A stretch of DNA of 12,745 nucleotides from Candidatus Schekmanbacteria bacterium (GTDB lineage: Bacteria > CSSED10-310 > JACPHN01). Under the pieces are notes generated by a model. The model saw only the letters and a list, made by a program, of their open reading frames with translations. It searched no databases and was not told the DNA's origin. Every line of letters starts with the position of its first letter. Positions within the stretch are counted from its first letter, which is position 1. The stretch spans positions 1-12,745 of the forward strand of contig JACPHN010000035.1 in the NCBI GenBank assembly GCA_016188575.1, in the 5' to 3' direction. Below are positions 1,560 through 12,745 of the stretch, piece by piece. A program made the position numbers and the translations under genes.

Positions 1560-2702
1560 GTGGAGTTCTCACTCACCGAAGAGCAAGTCGCGTTCAAGCA
1601 GGAAGTCGTCCGCTTCGCTCGCGCCGAAATCGTCCCGCGCTGCCGCGAGCATGACCTCAAGGAGGAATTCGACTTCGAATCCTTCCGCAAGCTCGGCGAA
1701 TTCGGCATTCTCGGCCTGCACTTTCCCGAGGAGCTCGGCGGCTCCGGCGCCGACGTGCTCACCACTGTGCTTGCCGGCGAGGCTCTTGGCGAGGCCGGTG
1801 TCGATGGCGGCCTGACGCTCGCCTATGGAGCCCACTCGTTTCTGTGCGCCGACACGATCCTGCGCAACGGCACGGACGAGCAGCGCCGGAAGCTCATCCC
1901 GAAGCTCGCTTCCGGCGAGCACATCGGCTGCATGGGCCTGACGGAACCGGACGCCGGGTCCGACGTGGCGGCCATGAAAACCACGGCGCGCCGCCAGGGC
2001 GATCGCTACGTCCTCGACGGCGCGAAGATGTTCATCACCAACGGGCCGATTGCCGACGTCGCCGTGGTCTATGCCAAGACCCAACCGGAGCTTGGGCACG
2101 GCGGCATCTCGGCCTTCATCGTCGAGAAGGGGACGCCCGGTTTCACCGCCGGTCCGCCGCTCGTCAAGATGGGCGTGCGCACGTCCGTGACCAGCGAGCT
2201 CGTCTTCGCGGGCTGCGAGGTGCCGGCGGCGAATCTGCTCGGCCGCGAGGGTCAGGGGTTCCTCATGGCCATGCAGACTGTGGAGTGGGACCGGAGCGCA
2301 CTACTGGCGCCGTTCGTCGGCTCGGGCACCTACCTGCTGCAGAAGTGCGCCGCCTACGCGAGCGAGCGCACCCAGTTCGGCCGTCCGATCGCGGCCTTCC
2401 ACGCCACCAAGCAGAAGCTCGCCAGCATCCGCGTCTTCACCGAGGCCGCCCGCAGCCTCGTGTATCGCATCGCCTGGTGCAAGGACCAGGGTCGTCCGCT
2501 CAATCACCTCGAGGCGGCCGTGGCCAAGCTGTTCATCGGCGACTGGAGCCTGTCGCCCATAAACGACGCTGTCCTGCTCCATGGGGGCTACGGGTACTGC
2601 CACGAGTACGACGTGGAACGCGTTTTTCGCGATAGCCGACTGGCGCCGATCGGTGGTGGCACGTCGGATATCCAGAAAATGATCATCTCCAAGCTCATGT
2701 AG
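1560..2702 (+). CDS. Acyl-CoA dehydrogenase (catalytic-type subunit)
   Basis: A 380-aa protein of normal length for a flavin-dependent acyl-CoA dehydrogenase, which introduces the alpha,beta double bond into an acyl-CoA. The start is GTG 1560, with GAGGTGA (1549-1555) as ribosome-binding site. The N-terminal helical domain (about 1-115) is followed by the beta domain with signature GLTEPDAGSD (126-135), VLDGAKMFITNG (151-162), and the C-terminal helical domain with ERTQFGRP (269-276) and HGGYGYCHEYDVERVFRDSR (341-360). The residue that serves as catalytic Glu in medium-chain enzymes (I-Y-E-G-T) is Gly here (IGGGT, 364-368). The helix that supplies the base in isovaleryl-CoA dehydrogenase reads VEWDR (241-245), offering Glu242 or Asp244. 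It begins the operon and probably pairs with the degenerate homologue that follows. The family call is firm; the substrate cannot be read from the sequence. Confidence 0.93.
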   Translation: MEFSLTEEQVAFKQEVVRFARAEIVPRCREHDLKEEFDFESFRKLGEFGILGLHFPEELGGSGADVLTTVLAGEALGEAGVDGGLTLAYGAHSFLCADTILRNGTDEQRRKLIPKLASGEHIGCMGLTEPDAGSDVAAMKTTARRQGDRYVLDGAKMFITNGPIADVAVVYAKTQPELGHGGISAFIVEKGTPGFTAGPPLVKMGVRTSVTSELVFAGCEVPAANLLGREGQGFLMAMQTVEWDRSALLAPFVGSGTYLLQKCAAYASERTQFGRPIAAFHATKQKLASIRVFTEAARSLVYRIAWCKDQGRPLNHLEAAVAKLFIGDWSLSPINDAVLLHGGYGYCHEYDVERVFRDSRLAPIGGGTSDIQKMIISKLM

Positions 2703-2715
2703 GCCTTGCATCAGC

Positions 2716-2721
2716 GGAGGA
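2716..2721 (+). promoter_or_regulatory. Ribosome-binding site of the second dehydrogenase gene
   Basis: GGAGGA lies seven bases before ATG 2729 and fixes that start, giving a 26-nt gap after the first dehydrogenase gene. The tight coupling suits translation of two subunits in similar amounts. Confidence 0.7.
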
Positions 2722-2728
2722 CGACGCC

Positions 2729-3853
2729 ATGGACTTCGATCTCAGTCAGACCGTGCGCGAGGAGCTGCGCGTGCTCGAATCACTCGACTTTCCGGCCAGC
2801 GACGACGCGCAGGACGGGAATCCTCGCCCCTTGGCAGCGGCATTGGGCCGCGCGGGGTATTTCGGACCGGGCTCCCGAACCGGAAGCTCGCCGGATGGCG
2901 CCATTGGCGTCATCGCCGCCATCGAGGCATCGACCTGTCGCGCCGCTGCGGGGGCGCTTGGCATCGAGGCGGGAGTGCGCTTGTTGGCGATGGCGGTTGA
3001 CACATTCGGCGGGCCGGAACCGCGGGCGGCCTTGCTCGGGCCCTTGCGCGCGGGCGAGATGATCGCGCCGGTCGCGTTTCGCGAGGCTGCGTCCGCGAGC
3101 AAGGCGGCCGTGCTCCAGACCGCGGCGACCGCGTGCGACGGCGGTTATCACGTGACGGGAACGAAAGTCGGCGTGGTGTGGCCGGGAGAGCCCGACGCCG
3201 TTGCCGTTGCGGCGAGCTGTGGCGAGGGGCGGGCGGGGCTGTTTGTCGTGCGCTCGCCCGGCACCGCTGCCGGGATTTCGGTTACCAAGGTGGGTGGTTT
3301 TGGCGCCGGCGTGACTGTGGTGAGAGTGGCCTGCGAGTCGTGTCACGTGGCAGCAGCCGATGTCATCGGGCCGGTGCCCGCACCAGCGCTCTACGGGGCG
3401 CTCGAGCTGTGGGAAGACCTGACGTTGTTGGGGGTGGCCAACGGGTTGACACGTCTCGCCACGACGCGCGCTCTGGCGCATGCCAAGCAGGCGGTGGTAG
3501 CGGGCAAGCCGCTGCTCGCGCACCAGTGGGCGGGCTACAAGGCGGCGGAGCTGCTCGCACAGCAGCAGACCGCGCAACTGCTCGCCTATCGCGCGGCCTG
3601 GTCGGCGGCGTCGGACCCGAGCGCCGCCCGCGCGCTCGTGGACTGCGCCCGGGTGTTTTGCACGGAAACCGCGATCCGGGTGACGCAGGAGGCGGCCCGC
3701 ATCGCCGGCGCGGACGGTGCCGGGCTCGACGCCGATATCTCCGCGGCCGCGGCGCTCGCGTTGCTCTTGCAGATTCTCGGGACGCCGGTCGAAAACGCCA
3801 AGCTGCGCATCGGCGACGACGTGCTGCGGTCGTGGGGGAGCCCCGCGGCCTGA
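2729..3853 (+). CDS. Degenerate acyl-CoA dehydrogenase-like subunit
   Basis: A 374-aa protein with the length and layout of an acyl-CoA dehydrogenase but with its active-site and flavin motifs worn away. The N-terminus MDFDLSQTVREEL (1-13) and the beta-domain segments GGYHVTGTKVGVV (138-150) and ISVTKVGGFGAG (183-194) follow the family. The TEPxxGSD signature has become FREAASASKAA (117-127). The ER-x-QFG flavin-contact motif is absent (AKQAVVAGKPLLAHQ, 252-266). The C-terminal GGxGY and RD signature is replaced by an Ala/Leu-rich segment ending QILGTP (348-353). In steroid-degrading actinobacteria, FadE pairs such as ChsE1-ChsE2 form mixed tetramers in which one subunit is degenerate; I infer the same here. 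It follows the active-type gene by 26 nt and precedes the regulator by 13 nt. An independent enzymatic role looks unlikely. Confidence 0.8.
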   Translation: MDFDLSQTVREELRVLESLDFPASDDAQDGNPRPLAAALGRAGYFGPGSRTGSSPDGAIGVIAAIEASTCRAAAGALGIEAGVRLLAMAVDTFGGPEPRAALLGPLRAGEMIAPVAFREAASASKAAVLQTAATACDGGYHVTGTKVGVVWPGEPDAVAVAASCGEGRAGLFVVRSPGTAAGISVTKVGGFGAGVTVVRVACESCHVAAADVIGPVPAPALYGALELWEDLTLLGVANGLTRLATTRALAHAKQAVVAGKPLLAHQWAGYKAAELLAQQQTAQLLAYRAAWSAASDPSAARALVDCARVFCTETAIRVTQEAARIAGADGAGLDADISAAAALALLLQILGTPVENAKLRIGDDVLRSWGSPAA

Positions 3854-3866
3854 GGAGCGCAAGCGC

Positions 3867-4538
3867 ATGGCGGTGCCCTCGGCGTCGGCGCTCGCCCGCC
3901 GCGCGCAACGGCGCGAGCGCGAGCGGAATCAGCGGCTCGAGTCCATTCTCCGGGCGGCGGAGGCGTTTTTTGCCGACGTCGGCTACCAGGCGACCAACAT
4001 GACGCAAATCGCCGACGCCGCTGAGGTCTCTGTCGGCACCGTCTACTTCTACTTCAAGAACAAGGAAGAGCTGATGGTGCGCATCCTGGCCGACATCGGC
4101 TACTTCCTCCGCAACTTGCTCGGCCACCAATTTCGCGAGGCCGCCGATCCGCTCGATGGCTTCCGCCGCGCGAGCCACGCCTTCTTTGCGGAGTTCTGTC
4201 GCGACAATCGGCAGAAGCTCATCATCACGTACCGCGAGTCGGTGAGCCAGGGAGAGGCGGTCGAGGCGCTGCGGCGTCAACTGCTCGAGAAGCTCACGGC
4301 CGATGTCATGGAGGCGCTGTCGCGGCTCGCCGCCAGTCGCCGCTGGCTCGGCGCTTCGCGCTACGCGCTCGACACCACTGCGGCCGGCATTCTCGGTACC
4401 TATGAGCGCCTCGCGTACCGCTATTTCATCTGGCACGATGCCGCCGAAGACGCCGATGCGATCGCCGCCGAGGCCTTCGCCTGGATCGCGGGCGGCATCG
4501 AGGCGGTGCTCGGCGCAAGGAGCGGCGATGCACCTTAA
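3867..4538 (+). CDS. TetR/AcrR-family transcriptional regulator
   Basis: A 223-aa one-component repressor of typical TetR length. ATG 3867 is chosen because GAGGAG (3852-3857) sits nine bases upstream; the open frame reaches farther back, but that part overlaps the dehydrogenase gene and reads as Arg/Ser-rich shadow. A basic N-terminal arm (residues 9-24) leads into the TetR helix-turn-helix: ILRAAEAFFADVGYQATNM (27-45), TQIADAAEVSVGTVYFYFKN (46-65) and KEELM. The rest is a helical ligand-binding and dimerisation domain whose sequence does not identify a ligand. Regulators of this type beside acyl-CoA genes often respond to acyl-CoAs. Being inside the operon, it is likely autoregulatory and probably acts at the promoter region before 1560. 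Its last 11 bases overlap the PHP gene. Confidence 0.9.
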   Translation: MAVPSASALARRAQRRERERNQRLESILRAAEAFFADVGYQATNMTQIADAAEVSVGTVYFYFKNKEELMVRILADIGYFLRNLLGHQFREAADPLDGFRRASHAFFAEFCRDNRQKLIITYRESVSQGEAVEALRRQLLEKLTADVMEALSRLAASRRWLGASRYALDTTAAGILGTYERLAYRYFIWHDAAEDADAIAAEAFAWIAGGIEAVLGARSGDAP

Positions 4539-5097
4539 GGGCGCGCTGCACGCACACACCACCTTTTCCGACGGCGCGCTCGCGGTGGAGGCCGTTTGCG
4601 AGACGTACCGCGGGCTCGGTTTCGACTTTGTGGCGATTACCGACCACGACTTCCTGGTCAGGCCGGATTACTGGGACTGCCTCGCGCGCGTGCGGACCGA
4701 TGTGCTGCTCTTTGCGGGGATGGAGCTGACGGTGTTCGAGAAAGGCTACGTCCACGTCAACCGCATTCGCGGCGAGCGCGACGAGCTCCACATCTTCAAT
4801 CACCCTGCGGATCTGAATCTGCCGTTGCGGCGGATAATCGAGCGCATCCTGGCCGTGGCGCGGCGCCTGCCGATAGACGCTGTCGAGCTGACCGCGCGGG
4901 GCACCCGGATCCCCGAGCTCGAAGCCGCCAAGCTGCCATTCCCCAAGGTAGCGACGGATGACTCCCACACGCGCGCCGGGTGTGGGCGAGCCTGGGTCGA
5001 AATGGACAGCCGGCGCGACAAGGACGCGATCATCCGCGCCATTCGCGAGGGAGACTTCTGGAACTGTTATGCTGATGCCGGCCGGTACGGCTCCTGA
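4528..5097 (+). CDS. PHP-domain metal-dependent phosphoesterase-like protein
   Basis: A 189-aa protein with the polymerase-and-histidinol-phosphatase (PHP) fold, a multi-metal hydrolase that usually cleaves phosphate esters. Metal-ligand motifs appear in the expected order: HAHTTFSDG (8-16), ITDHD (37-41), GMELT (64-68), NHP (91-93) and DDSH (144-147). It is short, close to a single-domain PHP protein, with no added polymerase or nuclease domain. ATG 4528 has AAGGAG (4517-4522) five bases upstream and overlaps the TetR gene by 11 bases in another frame, indicating translational coupling. Its place between a regulator and thiolase-like genes gives no obvious substrate. Possible roles include hydrolysis of a phosphorylated or nucleotide-containing by-product such as a CoA fragment, which is a guess. 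A gap of 61 nt separates it from the next gene. Confidence 0.85.
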   Translation: MHLKGALHAHTTFSDGALAVEAVCETYRGLGFDFVAITDHDFLVRPDYWDCLARVRTDVLLFAGMELTVFEKGYVHVNRIRGERDELHIFNHPADLNLPLRRIIERILAVARRLPIDAVELTARGTRIPELEAAKLPFPKVATDDSHTRAGCGRAWVEMDSRRDKDAIIRAIREGDFWNCYADAGRYGS

Positions 5098-5143
5098 CGA
5101 TCAGGACCGCGGCGCGCCGGCTGGCGAAAAAACGAGAGCGGGC

Positions 5144-5153
5144 AAGGAGGTGA
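5144..5153 (+). promoter_or_regulatory. Strong ribosome-binding site of thiolase-like gene 1
   Basis: AAGGAGGTGA is a complete anti-16S match and lies five bases before ATG 5159. It decides the start, since the same frame is open about 200 bases farther upstream inside the PHP gene. The 61-nt gap is the longest in the operon, so this strong site may allow independent high translation of the following genes. Confidence 0.75.
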
Positions 5154-5158
5154 CGCAA

Positions 5159-6313
5159 ATGAGCGGACGCGTGGCGATTTGCGCAGTGGCGCAAACGAAG
5201 TATGAGCGCAACAACTGGTATCAGCGCTTTCAGGGAATGGCGCTGGAGGTGGTCACTCCGCTACTGGAACAGACGGGTTTGAAGTTCGATCGCCGTCGTG
5301 GCATCGGCATCGACATGGCCGTGAGCGTTTCCGACGACGTTTTCGACGCGCGCACGATCTCGGACAACGCGCTGACCGACGTGCTGGGCGCGCATTTCGG
5401 TTGCGAGGAGAAGGTCGCTCAGGAAGGCGCACAGGCGATCTACTACGCGGTCGCGGCGATTCGCTCCGGGCACGTCGACGCCGTGCTCGTGGTGGGGCAC
5501 TGCAAGGAGTCGCAGAGCCAGAGCCGCAACATGGTAACCCATCTCGCGTTCGATCCGTTCTACACGCGCCCAGTGGGTCTGGACTTTTGTGCGGCCGCGG
5601 GGCTTCAAGCGCAGGCCTACGGCGCGCGCACGGGTTTGTCCGAGGAGCAGCTCGCGCGGATTGTCGTGCGCGCCCGGGAGCAGGCGGCGCTCAACCCGGC
5701 GACCGCGGGGCTGCCGCCGGTCTCGGAAAGCGAGGTCGCCGCCTCGCCGATGCTGGCGGACCCGATCCGCACGCTGCACGCGTATCCGGTTTCAGACGGC
5801 GCGGTCGGCATGATCCTCGCCTCGGAGGAGCTGGCGCCGAAGCTGTGCGCGACTCCGGTATGGGTGACGGGGGTGGGGAGCTCCATGGACGTCTTTTTTC
5901 TCGGTGACCGCGACCTCGCCGACCCCGCCTGTCTGCGCGCCGCCGCGAGCCGCGCGTATCGCCGCGCCGAGGTCACCGACCCGGCGGTAGACTTCGATGT
6001 CGTCGAGGTATCCGATCAGTACGCGTATCAGCTACCGCTGTGGGCGGAGGGGCTCGGCCTTTGCGCTGCCGGCCAGGGACCCGCGTGGGTCGACGATCCG
6101 CGCCGCTCCCGGCCGGTGGTGAACCCGTCGGGCGGCATGCTCGCCGGCAACCCGCTGATCCTGGGCGGGCTCGTGCGGGTCGCCGAATGCGCGCTACAAC
6201 TGCGCGGCGAGGCCGGCGGGCGCCAGGTCTCGGGAGCGCGGCGTGCGCTTGCTCACGGCGTCATGGGGCCGGCAGGACAGATGTGCTCCGTCGTCGTGCT
6301 CGCGCGCGATTGA
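5159..6313 (+). CDS. Thiolase-fold protein 1 lacking catalytic Cys/His (Ltp2-type aldolase candidate)
   Basis: A 384-aa member of the thiolase/SCP-x superfamily. Fold markers are the first strand (VAICAVAQTKYERN, 5-18), AIYYAVAAIRSGHVDAVLVV (93-112), the conserved core YPVSDGAVGMILAS (209-222) and NPSGGMLAGNPLILGG (322-337). The position of the nucleophilic Cys in condensing thiolases reads VAQEGAQA (86-93), with no Cys. The GHP histidine is Asn331 in GNP. The protein should therefore not run the normal Cys-dependent thiolysis. Ltp2-type proteins with this fold instead cleave beta-hydroxyacyl-CoAs by a retro-aldol reaction with a DUF35 partner and depend on tyrosines; DQYAYQLPLWAE (286-297) supplies candidate Tyr288 and Tyr290. 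The downstream DUF35 genes support this reading. A structural or lipid-transfer role is the alternative. It is separated from thiolase-like gene 2 by 26 nt. Confidence 0.85.
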   Translation: MSGRVAICAVAQTKYERNNWYQRFQGMALEVVTPLLEQTGLKFDRRRGIGIDMAVSVSDDVFDARTISDNALTDVLGAHFGCEEKVAQEGAQAIYYAVAAIRSGHVDAVLVVGHCKESQSQSRNMVTHLAFDPFYTRPVGLDFCAAAGLQAQAYGARTGLSEEQLARIVVRAREQAALNPATAGLPPVSESEVAASPMLADPIRTLHAYPVSDGAVGMILASEELAPKLCATPVWVTGVGSSMDVFFLGDRDLADPACLRAAASRAYRRAEVTDPAVDFDVVEVSDQYAYQLPLWAEGLGLCAAGQGPAWVDDPRRSRPVVNPSGGMLAGNPLILGGLVRVAECALQLRGEAGGRQVSGARRALAHGVMGPAGQMCSVVVLARD

Positions 6314-6339
6314 CGGCACCCAGGCAGAAGGAGCTGACC

Positions 6340-7524
6340 ATGAAGCGAAATCGCAATGTTGGCATCGTCGGCGTGGGGCAGACCGTGCACTCGAGTCACC
6401 GCGAGGACGTCAACCAACCCGAGCTCATCTACGAAGCCGTGCGCGAGGCGCTGGAGCACGCGCACCTCAAGATCGCCGACGTCGACTGCATTATCCACGG
6501 GAACATGGAGCTGTTCGAAATGGTGCATCAGCCGGACCTGTGGCACTCGCTCGGGACGGGCGCCGCGGGCAAGGAGGTGCTGCGCGTCACCACAGGCGGC
6601 ACGACCGGGACAACGCTGATGTGTGCGGCCGATCACCTGGTGGCCTCCGGCTTGCATGACGTGGTCATGGCGGTCGGCGTCGAGAAGCTCCAGGAAGGCC
6701 ACACGACCGGCGGCATCACGAACATGGCCGACCCGCTGTGGGCGCGCCAGCTCCAGACCGGCGCGCTCACGGGGTTGAGCGCCGACGCGCTCATCTACGA
6801 GTTCGGCGCCGAGCGCGCCCGCCGCGCGTCGATGATCTATAGAGTCATCATGGACCGCCACGCCGCGCTGAACCCCAAGGCCCATCGCCGCTTCGGGTTC
6901 ACGATGGAGCAGATCGACGCGCTCGCCGCCAGCTCGCCTCGCCTGGTCGGCGAGCTACGCATGGTCCACATGTGCTCGCAGAGCGACGGAGCGTGCGCCG
7001 TCATCGTCGCGAGCGAAGAGCGCGCCAGGCGCATCCGCCCGAACCCCGCCTGGATCGAGGACCACGCCACCGTCCATCGCGAAGAAATGTTCGGCGTGTT
7101 CGGCGGGTTGCCGATACGCAGCACCATGCGCCACGCCGCCGAGGAGATCTTTGCGCGCCGCGGGATTCGCGAGCCGCGACGCGAGATCGACGTCTTCGAG
7201 ATGTACGATCCGTCGAGCTGGTGGGGCATCGAATGGCTCAAGGAGTTCTTGCTGCTGGAGGGGGACGCCCACCTGCGCATGATCGAGGACGAGGCCATCG
7301 CGATCACGGGGGACTTTCCCGTCAATCCATCGGGCGGCGTCATCGCTTCCAACCCGATCGGCGCCACGGCGCTGGTGCGCGTCGGCGAGGCCGCTCTGCA
7401 GGTGATGGGTGAGGCGGGAGCGCATCAGGTGCCGAAAGCGGTCGAGCGCGCCCTGGCTTCGGGCTTCGGCGGCACCCTGTGGACGGTGCTTTTTCTGCTG
7501 TCGCGAAAGCTGCCGGTATGGTAG
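6340..7524 (+). CDS. Thiolase-fold protein 2 lacking catalytic Cys/His
   Basis: A 394-aa second thiolase-superfamily protein, clearly divergent from its upstream neighbour. ATG 6340 has AGAAGGAG (6326-6333) as ribosome-binding site; in-frame codons upstream lie within thiolase-like gene 1. The first strand is NVGIVGVGQTVHSSHRED (6-23). The nucleophile loop is TTGGTTGTT (84-92), with Thr/Gly where Cys would be. The core SQSDGACAVIVAS (213-225) and VNPSGGVIASNPIGATALVR (328-347) are conserved, but the GHP histidine is Asn338. In place of the usual histidine loop it has an aromatic cluster, VFEMYDPSSWWGIEWLKEF (285-303), which could line a pocket and offers Tyr289. Two catalytically altered thiolase-fold proteins beside two DUF35 genes suggest a mixed complex, or two aldolases with different substrates. 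A condensing ketothiolase is unlikely given the missing residues. Confidence 0.85.
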   Translation: MKRNRNVGIVGVGQTVHSSHREDVNQPELIYEAVREALEHAHLKIADVDCIIHGNMELFEMVHQPDLWHSLGTGAAGKEVLRVTTGGTTGTTLMCAADHLVASGLHDVVMAVGVEKLQEGHTTGGITNMADPLWARQLQTGALTGLSADALIYEFGAERARRASMIYRVIMDRHAALNPKAHRRFGFTMEQIDALAASSPRLVGELRMVHMCSQSDGACAVIVASEERARRIRPNPAWIEDHATVHREEMFGVFGGLPIRSTMRHAAEEIFARRGIREPRREIDVFEMYDPSSWWGIEWLKEFLLLEGDAHLRMIEDEAIAITGDFPVNPSGGVIASNPIGATALVRVGEAALQVMGEAGAHQVPKAVERALASGFGGTLWTVLFLLSRKLPVW

Positions 7525-7544
7525 CGAAGGCGGAGGAGGTCAAC

Positions 7545-8408
7545 ATGAGCGACATCGCGATACCGGTAACAGTCGACGACATCTTCGGAACCATGGAGAA
7601 GCGCGTCAACCCGGACGGCATCGCCGGGGTGTCGGCGCGCTACGGATACGAAATCACCGGCGAGGGCGGCGGCACCTGGACCGTCGCCGTGGACAAGGGG
7701 AAGGTCGCCGTCACCCGGGGGCTCGAGAGCGTCAACGTAAAATCGATCATTTCGGCGAGCGACTTCATCGCTCTGAACCTTGGCAAGCTCGACGGCATGA
7801 CCGCGTTTACCACGGGCCGCCTCCGGGTCGAGGGCGACATGGCGCTCATGCTGAAGGCGCCGCGTTTTTTCAAGAAATACGTGCCGCCGGCGCCGGCAGG
7901 CGTGGCGGCCGAGGCCCCGCGCGCGGAGCTCGTCGTGCTCAGGCAGATCCTCTCCATCCCGCAGCGATTTGCCACGGGGCCAATCATGGGCAAGTTCCTG
8001 AGCGCTCTGAAGGAGCGCAAGATTCTCGCGATTCGGTGCTCGCGCTGCGGTAAGCGACTCCTGCCGGCGCGCGAGGTCTGCGCGGATTGCGTCGCGCCGG
8101 CGACGGATTGGGTCGAGGTGGGTCCCGGCGGGAAGCTGACGATGTACGACATCACCTACTACGCGAGCCCCGATCCACTCACCGGGGAGAGCCGCGAGAC
8201 GCCATACGTCTCCGCCCACATCCTGCTGGATGGTTGCGAGGGCCAGGAGACGTTCTGGCACGAGGTCAACCCGGACCACATTCCGCGGATGCACCCGGGC
8301 GCGCGCGTCTGGCCCGTCTGGAATGAGCAGCGTCGCGGAGCGATCACCGACATTCGACATTTCGACGTCGTCGACGAGAACGACACCGCGGAAGGGGTGG
8401 CACTGTGA
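7545..8408 (+). CDS. SCP2 sterol-carrier domain fused to a Zn-ribbon/OB-fold DUF35 domain
   Basis: A 287-aa two-domain protein. Residues 1-112 match the SCP2 lipid-carrier fold, with TWTVAVDKGKVAVTRG (44-59), VKSIISASDFIALNLGKLDG (65-84) and AFTTGRLRVEGDMALMLKA (87-105). After a Pro/Ala linker and the helix typical of DUF35 (GKFLSALKERKILAIRC, 149-165), a rubredoxin-like zinc ribbon has C165-x2-C168 and C179-x2-C182. An OB fold follows (about 187-272, with PYVSAHILLDG at 220-230). DUF35 proteins are obligate partners of thiolase-fold enzymes: ChsH2 with Ltp2 in steroid catabolism, and the archaeal thiolase/HMG-CoA synthase complex. Here the SCP2 domain may present a hydrophobic acyl chain. 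ATG 7545 has AGGAGGT (7534-7540) upstream; the gene sits 20 nt after thiolase-like gene 2 and overlaps the next by 4 bases. Confidence 0.88.
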   Translation: MSDIAIPVTVDDIFGTMEKRVNPDGIAGVSARYGYEITGEGGGTWTVAVDKGKVAVTRGLESVNVKSIISASDFIALNLGKLDGMTAFTTGRLRVEGDMALMLKAPRFFKKYVPPAPAGVAAEAPRAELVVLRQILSIPQRFATGPIMGKFLSALKERKILAIRCSRCGKRLLPAREVCADCVAPATDWVEVGPGGKLTMYDITYYASPDPLTGESRETPYVSAHILLDGCEGQETFWHEVNPDHIPRMHPGARVWPVWNEQRRGAITDIRHFDVVDENDTAEGVAL

Positions 8409-8872
8409 GCGCGGACACGCATGACTGCTTCGTCGTCGAGGGAAAGCTGGCACTGCCATATCAGTACTTCGCGGGCAAGACCGGCAGCCGCTTCCTGACC
8501 TCGCTGCGCGATGACAAGCGCATTCTGGGGCTGCGCTGCGAACGCTGCCGCAAGGTCTTCGTGCCGCCTCGCGAGACCTGCCAGGGGTGTTTCGAGCCGA
8601 TCGCGGGAAACTGGGTCGAGGTGGCTGCTACCGGCACGGTGACCGGGTTCACCGTCGTGCGCTACGCCGAACCGCACCAGCCGCTGGCGCCGCCATACGT
8701 GCTCGCGCTGATCAAGCTCGACGGCGCGGACACCGCGCTCGTGCACCTCGTGACAGGGGTGAGCCCGGAAGACGTGCGCACGGGGATGAGGGTGCGGGCG
8801 CACTGGGCCGCGCAGCCGGTGGCGACGATCCTGGCGATCGACAGTTTTCGCCCGGCCGAGGAGCGGTCGTGA
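8405..8872 (+). CDS. Zn-ribbon/OB-fold DUF35 protein
   Basis: A 155-aa stand-alone DUF35 protein. The N-terminal helix (LPYQYFAGKTGSRFLTSLRD, 17-36) precedes a zinc ribbon with C45-x2-C48 and C59-x2-C62. An OB fold follows (about 68-148), including GTVTGFTVVRYAEPHQP (77-93) and PPYVLALIKLDG (96-107). It is a paralogue of the DUF35 half of the upstream protein but lacks the SCP2 domain. Start is GTG 8405, overlapping the previous stop in the pattern GTGA, which implies translational coupling. By family precedent it should bind one of the two thiolase-fold proteins and help position the CoA thioester. It is the last gene of the operon; 232 bases separate it from the next gene. Confidence 0.9.
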   Translation: MSADTHDCFVVEGKLALPYQYFAGKTGSRFLTSLRDDKRILGLRCERCRKVFVPPRETCQGCFEPIAGNWVEVAATGTVTGFTVVRYAEPHQPLAPPYVLALIKLDGADTALVHLVTGVSPEDVRTGMRVRAHWAAQPVATILAIDSFRPAEERS

Positions 8873-8921
8873 AGAGTGCTGAGGGCTGGGGGCCGGGAGC
8901 GTCTACCTCTCAAGACATTCT

Positions 8922-8951
8922 GCCGACGCCCGCTTTCGGCGGAAGTGTCGG
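8922..8951 (+). terminator. GC-rich hairpin after the operon, doubtful terminator
   Basis: Fifty bases after the last operon stop, CCGAC (8923-8927) can pair with GTCGG (8947-8951), and nested or competing stems such as GCCGA (8922-8926) with TCGGC (8936-8940) are possible. No T-run follows; the next bases are GGTGGGG. A Rho-independent terminator is therefore not established, and the fold may simply reflect base composition. Confidence 0.2.
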
Positions 8952-9026
8952 GGTGGGGTGCTTCGTGATGTGCTTTCCGCACAGCTCGCAGTCGCACAGG
9001 CGGTGGATTTAGGGATTGCTTGCAGG

Positions 9027-9055
9027 TTGACAGGACCGGTTCGGAATGTCATCAT
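9027..9055 (+). promoter_or_regulatory. Candidate extended -10 promoter of the surface-protein gene
   Basis: A perfect TTGACA (9027-9032) is followed after 17 bases by CATCAT (9050-9055), four of six matches to the -10 consensus. It is preceded by TGT (9047-9049), the extended -10 element. Transcription would begin near 9062 and leave a leader of roughly 40 bases before ATG 9105. It is the best promoter-like sequence in the window and suggests the surface-protein gene is transcribed separately from the acyl-CoA operon. Confidence 0.5.
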
Positions 9056-9104
9056 CGATTCGCGAGGGCTGAAAGCAAGCAGTCCCCGGCGAAAGAGGGG
9101 AAGA

Positions 9105-12100
9105 ATGGTGCTCCGAGAGGCAAATGCGAGGTTGAATCGCGTGAGCTCGACGGCCGTGGCTGCGTTCGCGGCCGGGGTGGTGGGCGATGCCGCGATGCTG
9201 GCGTGCTCGACCACGGCTGCGGCGGCGCCGGTGACGGCGATTTCCGGGCACGCCTACCTGAGCGGCGCGGCGGAGCACGGCGGGATCGCGGTCTCCCTAA
9301 CGCAGGTGCACGTGGGGTTCTCCGGACCGGCATTGGCGGCGCTGCTGATCGCGCTGGCGGTGGTCGTGGCGATGGCGTGGCGGCGCGGAGCCGGCCGGCC
9401 AGCGCGTCTCGCGGTTGCGGGAGCGATGGCGCTCGCAATCGCGGGGGGGGGGGGGCGAGTTTGGGTTGCAGATGCGCTCGTCGATCCCCTCGAGGCGGTG
9501 ACCGACGCGAGCGGAAGCTTTTCGTTCGTTGCCCCCGCGGCGGAGACGGTGTTCGCGCCGGGAAGCTACGATCTGAGGTATCGCCGGGAGGGGTACTCGG
9601 AGGCGCGCCGGTTTGTGGCGATCGGCGCGGATGACGGGTCGACAGTGGTCCTGGACGCGGTGACACTGGCGGCGGAGGGGGCGAGCCCGACGCCGAGCGC
9701 CACGGGAACCGCGCGCGCGACCGAGACGCCGAGCGTCACGGCGACAGCGACCGCGGAGCCGACCGCGTCGGGAACGGCAACGGTGACGCCGGCGGCGGGC
9801 GTGCCCAGCGCAACCGGCACAGCGACGGGTATTCCGACGGCGACTCCGACAGCGGAGGTGGCGTCGAGCCCGACCCCGACATCGACTGTTCAGACGGCAA
9901 CCGCGACGGTCACGAGCGTGACCGCGGCGACCTCGACATCTACGGCGACGTCCACGCCAGCGCCTCCCGCGGCTACGGCCACCTCGACGGCGCTCCCCAC
10001 CGCGAGCGCTACCGCGACGGCAACGCCACCGCTTCCGCCGACCTCCACGCCAACGCCCACATCCACGCGAACACCCACTCCAACCGCGACGCCGACCGAG
10101 ACGCCGACACCCACGCCCTCCCTCACCCCAATCCCGACCGCCGGCAGCGAAGACGTCCTGCCGCCGCCCGGCGACGCGCCGCGGGCGGCAATCACCCTCG
10201 GCACGACCTTTGAGGAGCGCGCCGACTTCCTCTACACCGGGGCATCGCCGGCCCAGACCGGCGTCGCCCCGGGAACGCTCATCGCCGCGCGCCTGGCCAT
10301 CGTCCGCGGCCGCGTCACCGGCGCCGCCGGGACCGGGCTTGCCGGGGTCGCGGTTGCGGTTCTCGATCACCCCGACCTCGGCGCCACCCAGACGCGCGCC
10401 GACGGCGGCTATGACCTCGCGGTCAACGGCGGAACGTCGCTCGTGCTGACGTTCGCCGCGAGCGGATACCTGCCGGTCCAGCGCCCGGTCGATGCCCCCT
10501 GGAACGTCATTACGCGTATCGACGACGTCGTCCTGACCGCGGCGCAGGCGGCCGCCGCGGCGGTGGACACCTCCGGTCCGGAGGCGATCGCGGTCGTGCG
10601 CGGCGATGTCGAGAGCGACGCCGACGGGACCCGGCAGGCGACGGTGTTCTTCGCCCAGGGAGCGGTCGCCACGCTGCAGCTCCCCGGTGGTGGCACGCAG
10701 GACCTCACCGCGTTTCACGTCAGGGTGAAGGAATTCACCGTCGGGGAGCGCGGCCCGGAGGCGATGCCGGGACCGCTCGGGCCGACGGTCGGCTACACCT
10801 ACGCAGCCGAGCTGTCGCTCGACGAGGCCGATGCCGCGGGCGCGACAAGTGTCTCGTTCGATCGCCCTGTGATCTTCTATGGGGACAACTTCCTGGGCTA
10901 CCCGGTCGGCGAGACCGTGCCCGCGGGGTGGTTCGATCGCGCGCGCGGCGTCTGGGTGCCGGGCGACAACGGCCTCATCGTCGCGATCATCGGCACGACC
11001 GGAGACCTCGCGGAGCTCGACCTCGACGGCAGTGGACAGGCGGCCGATGCGGCCGCGTTGGCGGCAATCGGGATCGGCGACGACGAGCGGCGGCAGCTCG
11101 CGGCGCTCTACACCGCCGGCACCGAGCTGTGGCGGGTGCCGCTCGGCCATTTCACCCCCTGGGACTACAACTGGCCCGTCGGTCCGCCGCCCTACGCCTG
11201 GTGGCCCGAGCAACCCGACCCCGTCAAGCCCGTTCCGACGCCCGAGAAGCCGCACAAGAAGTGCCAGTCGTCGGCGATCGAGTGCGAGGGGCAGGTGCTG
11301 ACGGAGCGCGTCGCGATCCCCGGCGCGCCATTCTCGCTGGTCTACCGCAGCGACCGCGCGGTCGGCTACGCGGGCGAGCGGACACTCGAGATTCCGCTTG
11401 TCGACGTCGACGGCACGCTGCCGCCGGGCGTCGTGGCCGTGGCCGTGAACGTGGCGGTCGCGGGGCGGTTTTACGAGGAGCGCATCGAAACGCCCGGCGC
11501 ACAGCGGACGTTTACCTTCCCGTGGCCGGCGTGGGATGGGAAAACGGCGCTGGGCGAGAGCGTCGGTTGCGGGGAGGAGACGGCGACCGTGGAGGTCGGC
11601 TACATCTTCGACGCGGTGCGCGCGGTCGGGGGGCAGGCGTTCGGTGAGTCTGGAGAAACGTTTGTCACCGCTGACGTCATGCGCAACGAAATCGGGCTGT
11701 GGCGCCGATCGTCGGTGGCGCTCGGCGCTTGCCCGGCCTCGACAGGCGGCGGTGGATACCGCTCGGGACGCGACGCCGCGCCGGTGCAGCCCGCCGATCC
11801 CTGGGCGAGCCTCGCCGGCTGGAGCCTGAGCATCCAGCACGCGTTCGATCCCAAGGCGCGCATTCTCCATCTCGGCGGCGGGGCGCGCCTGCGCAAGCCG
11901 CCCGCGACGGTAGGAATCGTCGCGGGCACGGGAACCGCGGGCGCGGGTGGTGACGGCGGCCCGGCGGGCGAGGCCGAGCTGAACGGCCCGAGTGGTGTCG
12001 CCGCCGGACCGGACGGCGCGCTCTACATCGCCGACACGGGGAACCACCGGGTGCGCCGGGTGCGGCCGGACGGGATCATCGAGACTTTTGCCGGCACGGA

Positions 12101-12745
12101 CACAGCGGGTTACAGTGGTGACGGCGGGCCGGCAACGGCCGCGCGGCTCACCTTGCCCGTCGCGGTCGAGGTGGCACCGGACGGCGGCGTCCTGATCGTG
12201 GAGAACGACCTGCACGTCCGCGTGCGGCGGGTGGGTGCGGACGGGGTGATCGAGACGATCGCTGACTATCCATTCGGGGGCGCCGGACGTTCCGCGGGAC
12301 CGCTGGCGACTGGCGGGTCCGCGGGTGGCGACGTGGCGGTCGCTCCGGACGGCGCCATCTACGTCGCCGACCCCTACCACGCGAAGCTGTACCGGATCGG
12401 CACGGACGGCGTTAGCCGCGAGGTCGCGGGCACCGGAGCTCCCGGTGACAGCGGCGACGGCGGCCCTGCGAGCGCCGCCGCGCTCAGCAGCCCGGAAGCC
12501 GTCGCGGTCGACTCCTTCGGGATGGTCTACATCGCCGACGCGCGCAGCCACAAGGTTCGCGCGATCGCGCCGAGCGGCATCATCTCGACGTGGGCAGGTA
12601 CGGGGTCCAGCGGCGCCTGCACGGCCGGGGACGACGCGTCGTGCGGCGACGGCGGCGCGGCGACCGCGGGAGAGCTGAGCGGCAGCGGCGGGCTCGCCGT
12701 GACGCCGGACGGGCGCTTGCTGGTCAGCGATACCGAACAGGGGCG
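9105..12745 (+). CDS. Teneurin/RHS-like surface protein with NHL propeller (3' end outside window)
   Basis: One frame is open without a stop from ATG 9105 to the window end, 1213 complete codons, with strong coding bias throughout. GAGGGGA (9095-9101) is the likely ribosome-binding site. Layout: a hydrophobic N-terminus (about 13-42) serving as export signal or anchor; a carboxypeptidase-regulatory-like beta domain (43-66 and 127-180) split by a hydrophobic hairpin (75-113); a Thr/Pro/Ala stalk (194-347); a second such beta domain (399-461). Then come a beta-rich region with PAGWFDRARGVWVPGDNG (605-622) and HFTPWDYNWPVGPPP (682-696), an FN-plug-like segment (VLTERVAIPGAPFSLVYRSD, 731-750) and NHL repeats (936 to the end). 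This order is that of bacterial RHS/teneurin-like giants, which continue into a YD-repeat shell and often a variable toxin tip. Those parts are not in the window, so toxin function is inference. Confidence 0.88.
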   Translation, partial: MVLREANARLNRVSSTAVAAFAAGVVGDAAMLACSTTAAAAPVTAISGHAYLSGAAEHGGIAVSLTQVHVGFSGPALAALLIALAVVVAMAWRRGAGRPARLAVAGAMALAIAGGGGRVWVADALVDPLEAVTDASGSFSFVAPAAETVFAPGSYDLRYRREGYSEARRFVAIGADDGSTVVLDAVTLAAEGASPTPSATGTARATETPSVTATATAEPTASGTATVTPAAGVPSATGTATGIPTATPTAEVASSPTPTSTVQTATATVTSVTAATSTSTATSTPAPPAATATSTALPTASATATATPPLPPTSTPTPTSTRTPTPTATPTETPTPTPSLTPIPTAGSEDVLPPPGDAPRAAITLGTTFEERADFLYTGASPAQTGVAPGTLIAARLAIVRGRVTGAAGTGLAGVAVAVLDHPDLGATQTRADGGYDLAVNGGTSLVLTFAASGYLPVQRPVDAPWNVITRIDDVVLTAAQAAAAAVDTSGPEAIAVVRGDVESDADGTRQATVFFAQGAVATLQLPGGGTQDLTAFHVRVKEFTVGERGPEAMPGPLGPTVGYTYAAELSLDEADAAGATSVSFDRPVIFYGDNFLGYPVGETVPAGWFDRARGVWVPGDNGLIVAIIGTTGDLAELDLDGSGQAADAAALAAIGIGDDERRQLAALYTAGTELWRVPLGHFTPWDYNWPVGPPPYAWWPEQPDPVKPVPTPEKPHKKCQSSAIECEGQVLTERVAIPGAPFSLVYRSDRAVGYAGERTLEIPLVDVDGTLPPGVVAVAVNVAVAGRFYEERIETPGAQRTFTFPWPAWDGKTALGESVGCGEETATVEVGYIFDAVRAVGGQAFGESGETFVTADVMRNEIGLWRRSSVALGACPASTGGGGYRSGRDAAPVQPADPWASLAGWSLSIQHAFDPKARILHLGGGARLRKPPATVGIVAGTGTAGAGGDGGPAGEAELNGPSGVAAGPDGALYIADTGNHRVRRVRPDGIIETFAGTDTAGYSGDGGPATAARLTLPVAVEVAPDGGVLIVENDLHVRVRRVGADGVIETIADYPFGGAGRSAGPLATGGSAGGDVAVAPDGAIYVADPYHAKLYRIGTDGVSREVAGTGAPGDSGDGGPASAAALSSPEAVAVDSFGMVYIADARSHKVRAIAPSGIISTWAGTGSSGACTAGDDASCGDGGAATAGELSGSGGLAVTPDGRLLVSDTEQG
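9443..9455 (+). repeat. 13-G homopolymer inside the surface-protein gene
   Basis: Thirteen consecutive G residues span the codons for Gly114-Gly117 in the loop after the hydrophobic hairpin. At this length the surrounding frame is continuous on both sides. Gain or loss of one G would truncate the protein before the stalk. Such tracts are known slippage sites in other bacteria and also common assembly-error sites. Confidence 0.9.
9684..10145 (+). repeat. Low-complexity Thr/Pro/Ala stalk coding region
   Basis: About 154 codons encode mostly Thr, Pro, Ala and Ser, becoming a near-regular TPTPTxTPT pattern toward the end (STPTPTSTRTPTPTATPTET). The DNA is a degenerate ACG/ACC/CCG/GCG array rather than exact repeats, so it has drifted or been selected at protein level. 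Segments of this kind usually form extended, often glycosylated, stalks that project a domain from the cell surface. It separates the membrane-proximal domains from the NHL/RHS part. The antisense strand gives Val/Ala/Gly-rich open frames here that are by-products. Confidence 0.85.
11910..12745 (+). repeat. NHL beta-propeller repeats with 168-nt period
   Basis: At least five NHL-type blades can be seen, each ending a strand with an IADxxxHxVRxV-like segment: YIADTGNHRVRRV, LIVENDLHVRVRRV, YVADPYHAKLYRI, YIADARSHKVRAI and LLVSDTEQG (cut by the window). The loop motif GDGGPA starts at 11952, 12120 and 12456, spaced by exactly one and two units of 168 nt (56 codons). The blade between the last two has lost the loop motif. 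A fourth copy (GDGGAA, 12648) is 24 nt late because of an inserted loop with two Cys (residues 1172 and 1180). In teneurins and RHS relatives such a propeller sits just before the YD shell. Confidence 0.85.

What the first reader, a model, noticed from the sequence alone, without database searches (positions are those of the whole stretch)
1560..8872. Eight-gene operon for acyl-CoA dehydrogenation and apparent retro-aldol chain cleavage
Gene order and spacing (gaps 61 nt or less, two overlaps) tie a dehydrogenase pair, a TetR regulator, a PHP hydrolase, two thiolase-fold proteins and two DUF35 proteins into one unit. Established precedent is the actinobacterial cholesterol side-chain module: ChsE1-ChsE2, a MaoC hydratase with a DUF35 tail, and Ltp2. 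The present set keeps the dehydrogenase and aldolase parts but has two thiolase/DUF35 sets, an SCP2 domain in place of MaoC, and an added PHP enzyme. This may be an undescribed side-chain degradation or tailoring route in a non-actinobacterial lineage.
Basis: partly seen in the sequence, partly recalled or inferred. Interest (0 to 1): 0.7.

Follow-up and report, generated by a model that had tools for sequence, protein, structure and literature searches.

The report
Conserved Ltp3/Ltp4-type acyl-CoA cleavage operon
Eight neighbouring genes, found in the same order in several oil- and fat-degrading anaerobic bacteria, look like a kit that activates and then snaps branched or bulky fatty chains by a reverse-aldol cut, a reaction so far known mainly from bacterial steroid breakdown.

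Summary
In detail: eight co-directional genes at 1560-8872, gaps up to 61 nt, two overlaps. It is no local accident. A tree-supported ortholog of the second thiolase-fold protein (62-75% identical) lies in 76 named contigs, mostly Desulfobacterales, Syntrophaceae and Spirochaetes. Where contig length allows, ThlA is adjacent in 66/67, the PHP gene in 49/56, and two DUF35 domains in 54/54 and 50/50; 11 Desulfobacterales contigs carry the full set in order. Both thiolase-fold proteins have lost the nucleophilic Cys and the catalytic His residues. ThlB keeps an invariant Tyr at the position of the catalytic base of the Ltp2/Sal aldolases. In the tree they group with the Ltp3-like and Ltp4-like proteins of Actinomycetota, not with ordinary thiolases. 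Fusions in relatives (ligase-SCP2-DUF35, DUF35-MaoC, DUF35-BKACE) bracket a pathway: activation, dehydrogenation, hydration, retro-aldol cleavage, handling of a beta-keto acid. The best reading is a heteromeric, DUF35-clamped aldolase module for beta-branched or bulky acyl-CoAs. SCP2 does not replace MaoC: relatives carry both. Substrate, activity and the role of the PHP protein are unshown. New variant of a known kind.

The parts
1560..2702 (+). g1: acyl-CoA dehydrogenase, 380 aa (GTG start)
   Evidence: Pfam Acyl-CoA_dh_N/M/1; 22-row alignment shows invariant VEWDRSALLAP and APIGGGTS, i.e. no Glu at the usual 'EGT' position
2729..3853 (+). g2: divergent acyl-CoA dehydrogenase partner, 374 aa
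   Evidence: Pfam: only the C-terminal ACAD domain; follows g1 directly in the Desulfobacterales loci
3867..4538 (+). g3: TetR-family regulator, 223 aa
   Evidence: Pfam TetR_N; inside the operon in 21 of 50 loci with room
4528..5097 (+). g4: PHP-domain metal-dependent hydrolase, 189 aa
   Evidence: Pfam PHP and PHP_C; metal-ligand motifs conserved in 57 rows; near-universal operon member, 49 of 56 loci with room
5159..6313 (+). g5 (ThlA): thiolase-fold subunit, 384 aa, catalytic residues lost (SDQY for HDCF, no nucleophilic Cys)
   Evidence: AlphaFold model pLDDT 84.8, pTM 0.90; fold neighbours
6340..7524 (+). g6 (ThlB): thiolase-fold subunit, 394 aa, likely catalytic: TTGGTTG for the Cys loop, YDPSSWW for HDCF, NP for GHP
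   Evidence: AlphaFold model pLDDT 84.6, pTM 0.90; fold neighbours
7545..8408 (+). g7: SCP2 lipid-carrier domain fused to DUF35 (zinc ribbon plus OB fold), 287 aa
   Evidence: SCP2 and a g7-type DUF35 next to ThlB in 53/54 and 54/54 loci
8405..8872 (+). g8: second DUF35 protein, 155 aa
   Evidence: in relatives fused to MaoC or to BKACE

Best explanation
The operon encodes a heteromeric, DUF35-clamped retro-aldol cleavage module of the Ltp3/Ltp4 type for acyl-CoAs whose beta carbon is branched or bulky, so that ordinary beta-oxidation stalls at a tertiary alcohol. Proposed course: the acyl-CoA (made by a ligase elsewhere in this genome; fused to SCP2-DUF35 in Desulfobacterales) is dehydrogenated by g1/g2, hydrated by a MaoC-type hydratase (in trans here; fused to the g8-type DUF35 in Desulfobacterales), and cleaved by ThlA/ThlB (g5/g6), with Tyr289 of ThlB as base, into a ketone, aldehyde or beta-keto acid plus a short acyl-CoA. 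SCP2 would carry the hydrophobic chain and the two DUF35 domains would dock the enzymes on one complex. In Spirochaetes and Syntrophaceae the docking domain bears BKACE, which would turn a beta-keto acid product back into an acyl-CoA. Shown: gene order, fusions, motif losses, invariant Tyr, tree position, fold. Inferred: every chemical step, the complex, the substrate class and the role of the PHP hydrolase.
For: Conserved order across phyla. Loss of thiolase Cys/His/His in both subunits and invariant Tyr289, Pro291, Thr85, Gly87 in 31 aligned ThlB rows. Tyr289 lies at the first position of the HDCF motif, which is the YDHF Tyr294 of Ltp2 and the YDCY Tyr302 of Sal, shown to be the catalytic residue there (PMC12329534; alignment linking a plasmid Ltp2-like protein to 6ok1 and 9myr). 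Tree: ThlB with Ltp3-like proteins 97/96, ThlA with Ltp4-like proteins 100/99, intact-motif thiolases outside. Actinobacterial loci: double-DUF35 protein, then Ltp4-like, then Ltp3-like. Ltp3-Ltp4 is described as a heteromeric aldol-lyase for C24-branched sterol side chains (PMC6678751; PMC6273163). Fusions ligase-SCP2-DUF35, DUF35-MaoC and DUF35-BKACE. Best structural neighbours are SCP2-type thiolases and DUF35-partnered enzymes, Z 41-47, against about 35 for ordinary thiolases.
Against: No activity is shown for any member of this clade. ThlB has Pro where Sal uses Cys and Ltp2 uses His, and no obvious equivalent of the proton donor Tyr344 was identified. The window operon itself holds no hydratase, ligase or BKACE. 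The PHP hydrolase has no place in the known scheme. MaoC and BKACE fusions occur in different lineages, so the pathways may differ. Identification of the plasmid proteins as Ltp3/Ltp4 rests on NCBI models, gene order and recalled lengths, not on comparison with the named sequences.
Confidence: 0.6

Rival explanations
1. The module runs in the synthetic direction: ThlA/ThlB joins an acyl-CoA to a ketone or aldehyde (aldol-type condensation), tailoring or building a branched lipid or secondary metabolite, as DUF35-partnered thiolase-fold enzymes such as PhlABC do.
For: The fold group contains condensing enzymes with DUF35 partners (6esq, PhlC, CsATase). Aldol reactions are reversible.
Against: The nucleophilic Cys used by those condensing enzymes is gone in both subunits. 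Neighbours are oxidative and catabolic: dehydrogenases, ligases, CoA transferase, BKACE. Hosts are mostly fatty-acid and hydrocarbon oxidisers (by taxon name).
Confidence: 0.15
2. ThlA and ThlB are catalytically dead scaffolds that bind acyl-CoA and present it, with DUF35 and SCP2, to the dehydrogenase pair and the PHP hydrolase; the PHP protein does the real chemistry, for example hydrolysis of a thioester, lactone or similar bond.
For: Loss of all classical residues. PHP is nearly as conserved as the thiolase-fold genes and keeps its metal ligands.
Against: ThlB keeps a set of invariant polar residues in the active-site loops (Tyr289, Thr85, Asn338) at 62-75% identity across phyla, which suits an active enzyme better than a scaffold. 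Ltp3/Ltp4 mutants lose a specific catabolic step.
Confidence: 0.13
3. A true steroid side-chain module, the same job as ChsE/ChsH/Ltp2 or Ltp3/Ltp4.
For: Closest characterised relatives act on sterol side chains. An SCP2 domain suits sterols.
Against: Most hosts are Desulfobacterales, Syntrophaceae and Spirochaetes, groups not known, as far as I recall, for steroid ring degradation; no steroid ring gene was seen in the loci read. Ring-degradation genes in the window's own genome were not searched for.
Confidence: 0.12

Closest known systems
Ltp3-Ltp4 heteromeric aldol-lyase of Actinomycetota (C24-branched sterol side chains)
   Same: Two different thiolase-fold subunits encoded side by side; both without thiolase residues; two DUF35 domains next door (fused into one protein there); tree clades shared; Y.P.SW motif shared by ThlB and the Ltp3-like proteins.
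   Different: Only about a third identical; DUF35 domains separate and one bears SCP2; dehydrogenase pair, TetR and PHP in the operon; hosts mostly anaerobic; substrate unknown.
ChsE1-ChsE2 / ChsH1-ChsH2 / Ltp2 (igr operon) and Shy-Sal
   Same: Dehydrogenase pair, DUF35-partnered thiolase-fold aldolase with Tyr in place of the HDCF His; MaoC-DUF35 fusion present in Desulfobacterales orthologs.
   Different: YDPS instead of YDHF/YDCY; two thiolase-fold subunits instead of one; no MaoC in the window operon; SCP2 and PHP added.
Benzoylsuccinyl-CoA thiolase BbsAB and archaeal thiolase/HMG-CoA synthase complex
   Same: Thiolase fold plus DUF35 partner; among the closest structures.
   Different: These keep the catalytic Cys and His; NCBI's BbsB model scores 85 and 69 bits against a cut-off of 750.
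BKACE (beta-keto acid cleavage enzymes, DUF849)
   Same: Fused to the g8-type DUF35 in 18 of 50 loci with room, or a separate gene nearby in 4.
   Different: Not in the window operon; one copy elsewhere in the genome at C5.

Membership tests
Ltp3/Ltp4 heteromeric aldol-lyase | Two adjacent, distinct thiolase-fold subunits falling in the Ltp3-like and Ltp4-like clades | tested here: met
   Tree supports 97/96 and 100/99; adjacent in 66/67 loci. Reference rows are Ltp-like proteins on plasmids named by NCBI models, not the type sequences.
Ltp3/Ltp4 heteromeric aldol-lyase | Two DUF35 domains encoded with the pair | tested here: met
   g7 and g8; fused double DUF35 in Tsukamurella and Streptomyces plasmids
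Ltp3/Ltp4 heteromeric aldol-lyase | Membership of NCBI subfamily PRK08313 at its cut-off | tested here: not met
   g6 scores 263 bits against a cut-off of 514; the Tsukamurella protein scores 734
Ltp3/Ltp4 heteromeric aldol-lyase | Aldol cleavage of a branched acyl-CoA | not testable with these tools
   needs enzymology
Ltp2/Sal steroid aldolases | Catalytic Tyr at the first position of the HDCF motif | tested here: met
   Tyr289 of g6, invariant in 31 rows; g5 has Ser there
Ltp2/Sal steroid aldolases | YDHF or YDCY motif | tested here: not met
   g6 has YDPS, g5 SDQY
igr-type module (ChsE/ChsH/Ltp2) | MaoC hydratase carrying the DUF35 tail, in the operon | tested here: not met
   No MaoC domain in the window genes; present in orthologous operons
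igr-type module (ChsE/ChsH/Ltp2) | Heteromeric acyl-CoA dehydrogenase of two subunits | tested here: inconclusive
   Adjacent full and divergent ACAD genes conserved; no complex was modelled
Thiolases (condensing or degradative) | Nucleophilic Cys, HDCF His/Cys and GHP His | tested here: not met
   All replaced in g5 and g6
DUF35-partnered thiolase-fold enzymes | Physical complex with DUF35 | not testable with these tools
   only single chains can be predicted; closest structures are SCP2-type thiolases and DUF35-partnered enzymes

The most novel reading that the evidence does not exclude
A widespread, mostly anaerobic pathway that removes beta-branches from isoprenoid-like or otherwise branched acyl-CoAs by retro-aldol cleavage on a DUF35 scaffold, with either hydration (MaoC) or beta-keto acid recovery (BKACE) docked to the same aldolase and a PHP hydrolase as a new essential component. 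It would supply enzymes for anaerobic breakdown of branched lipids such as phytol-derived acids, for which I know of none.
Probability: 0.3. Interest if true: 0.8.

Novelty: new variant of a known kind. Interest (0 to 1): 0.56.

Why it matters
Beta-branched chains block ordinary beta-oxidation. If this module cuts them by retro-aldol chemistry, it extends a reaction studied in aerobic steroid degraders to hydrocarbon- and fatty-acid-degrading anaerobes, links BKACE to a defined upstream reaction, and gives a first context for an orphan PHP enzyme. Two sequenced isolates (Desulfosarcina alkanivorans PL12 and D. widdelii PP31) carry the full set, so it can be tested.

Tried and rejected
First coordinates for g5 and g6 were out of frame (errors) and were corrected. 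Full-text searches for phytol or isoprenoid ketone precedents and for Desulfosarcina/DUF35 or BKACE/DUF35 links gave nothing on this operon; absence in that library is weak evidence. An operator palindrome for the TetR protein upstream of g1 was sought: only GC-rich, 76-80% complementary pairs turned up, no convincing site. Contamination by a Desulfobacterales contig was considered and disfavoured by composition. Rejected as membership: ordinary thiolase, BbsB, acryloyl-CoA reductase (best NCBI model for g1, 333 bits against a cut-off of 640). A biotin carboxylase beside the operon, which a carboxylation route would need, was not seen among the neighbours scanned with Pfam, but it was not searched for systematically.

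Full report
What is there. Eight genes on the + strand fill 1560-8872 with gaps of at most 61 nt and two overlaps. Pfam gives acyl-CoA dehydrogenase (g1), a divergent partner recognised only in its C-terminal domain (g2), TetR (g3), PHP (g4), two thiolase-fold proteins (g5 ThlA, g6 ThlB), an SCP2-DUF35 fusion (g7) and a DUF35 protein (g8). The window is one whole contig of a 9.2 Mb draft genome with few phylum-mates. None of the seven phylum-mates searched has a convincing g7 relative; one gives a weak SCP2-only match. The genome has three COX1 genes, so it probably respires oxygen. Contig composition fits that genome.

Conservation. A different phylum (G042) carries TetR-PHP-ACAD-ACAD-[CoA ligase+SCP2]-ThlA-ThlB-DUF35-DUF35, with ThlB 68% identical. 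A scan of named genomes with the two-row ThlB alignment found 76 loci at 62-75% identity, mostly Desulfobacterales, Syntrophaceae/Smithella and Spirochaetes, including the isolates Desulfosarcina alkanivorans and D. widdelii. At loci with enough flanking sequence, ThlA precedes ThlB in 66/67, PHP lies upstream in 49/56, a g7-type DUF35 follows in 54/54 (SCP2 in 53/54) and a g8-type DUF35 in 50/50; TetR is present in 21/50, and the full eight-gene set in 11/35, all Desulfobacterales. The core is therefore PHP-ThlA-ThlB-SCP2/DUF35-DUF35. The dehydrogenases and TetR are a frequent addition.

Fusions. In Desulfosarcina alkanivorans the g7 counterpart is CoA ligase + two SCP2 + DUF35 and the g8 counterpart is DUF35 + MaoC. 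In Spirochaetes and Syntrophaceae g7 is SCP2-SCP2-DUF35 and g8 is DUF35 + BKACE. BKACE is a free-standing gene beside the operon in a few others, for example L084. DUF35 is known as the docking domain between a hydratase and a thiolase-fold aldolase (PMC12329534, PMC11321319), so what is fused to DUF35 here is probably brought to ThlA/ThlB.

Active sites. ThlB has TTGGTTG where thiolases have the Cys loop, YDPSSWW for HDCF and NP for GHP; ThlA has neither Cys nor His, with SDQY for HDCF. In 31 ThlB rows Tyr289, Pro291, Thr85, Gly87, Asn338 and Pro339 are invariant. The Tyr position corresponds to Tyr294 of Ltp2 and Tyr302 of Sal, where it is the catalytic base (linking alignments). The equivalents of the second catalytic residue (Tyr344 in Ltp2, Cys304 in Sal) are not conserved: Pro291 lies at the Cys304 position. 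The proton donor is thus unknown, a real gap in the argument.

Family. A careful tree of 58 proteins puts ThlB with Ltp3-like proteins (97/96) and ThlA with Ltp4-like proteins (100/99), with intact-motif thiolases in a separate clade (wider quick tree). On a Tsukamurella plasmid a double-DUF35 protein, an Ltp4-like and an Ltp3-like protein are consecutive, near an AMP-dependent ligase, a crotonase and an F420-dependent oxidoreductase. That ligase resembles FadD8 rather than FadD19. The literature describes Ltp3-Ltp4 as a heteromeric aldol-lyase needed for C24-branched but not straight sterol side chains, in a scheme with carboxylation, hydration and cleavage, after which the freed carboxylate must be re-activated (PMC6678751; PMC6273163). 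A BKACE docked to the aldolase would do just such a re-activation if the product is a beta-keto acid. This last link is inference.

Fold. AlphaFold models of ThlA and ThlB are good (pLDDT 84.8 and 84.6, pTM 0.90 each). Closest solved structures of ThlB are SCP2-type thiolases and DUF35-partnered enzymes, Z 41-47, against about 35 for ordinary thiolases; Ltp2 and Sal are at Z 40.8 and 40.9.

Mechanism proposed. Acyl-CoA, dehydrogenation by g1/g2, hydration in trans, retro-aldol cleavage by ThlA/ThlB with Tyr289 as base, SCP2 holding the chain, DUF35 domains as clamps. A beta-branched substrate is favoured because a tertiary beta-hydroxyl cannot be oxidised, so only aldol cleavage frees the chain. 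In g1 the usual catalytic Glu of the 'EGT' motif is Gly, and an invariant VEWDRS segment lies about where isovaleryl-CoA dehydrogenase has its base (the comparison with isovaleryl-CoA dehydrogenase is from memory). No substrate is shown. The PHP enzyme, with its metal ligands intact, has no assigned role.

Verdict. This is a new variant of the Ltp3/Ltp4 kind, broadly distributed in anaerobes, with an unexplained PHP component.

Noticed in passing
4528-5097 and the PHP genes of 49 loci: A PHP hydrolase is nearly as constant in these operons as the thiolase-fold pair, with intact metal ligands, yet no DUF35/thiolase system I know of has one. Its reaction is unknown.
   Followed up: partly
9105-12743 (+, runs off the contig): A long reading frame with a Thr/Ala/Pro-rich linker, a teneurin-type TTR domain and NHL repeats; the long GC-rich ORF on its opposite strand is probably not a gene.
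   Followed up: partly
L034 (G000:C184) 6201-11507, - strand: In the same genome: a 932-aa SDR-SCP2-SCP2-MaoC protein resembling peroxisomal multifunctional enzyme 2, next to an intact-motif SCP2-type thiolase and a KAS III-like protein with a DUF35 tail, followed by Mla-type transport genes. It could supply the missing hydratase.
   Followed up: partly
L110 15772-19054; similar in L087, L100, L101, L108: A second, diverged ThlA/ThlB set with two DUF35 genes follows the first in Syntrophaceae and Spirochaetes, often with a CoA transferase.
   Followed up: no
L063, L067, L068, L071 and others, right end: In Desulfobacterales a second, closer ThlA/ThlB/SCP2-DUF35 set follows the operon after a further ligase, so one genome may handle two related substrates.
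   Followed up: no
L027 8733-10721 against L059 11300-13984 and window 7545-8408: The SCP2 domain changes partners: fused to a CoA ligase in G042, to ligase plus DUF35 in Desulfosarcina, and to DUF35 alone in the window.
   Followed up: partly
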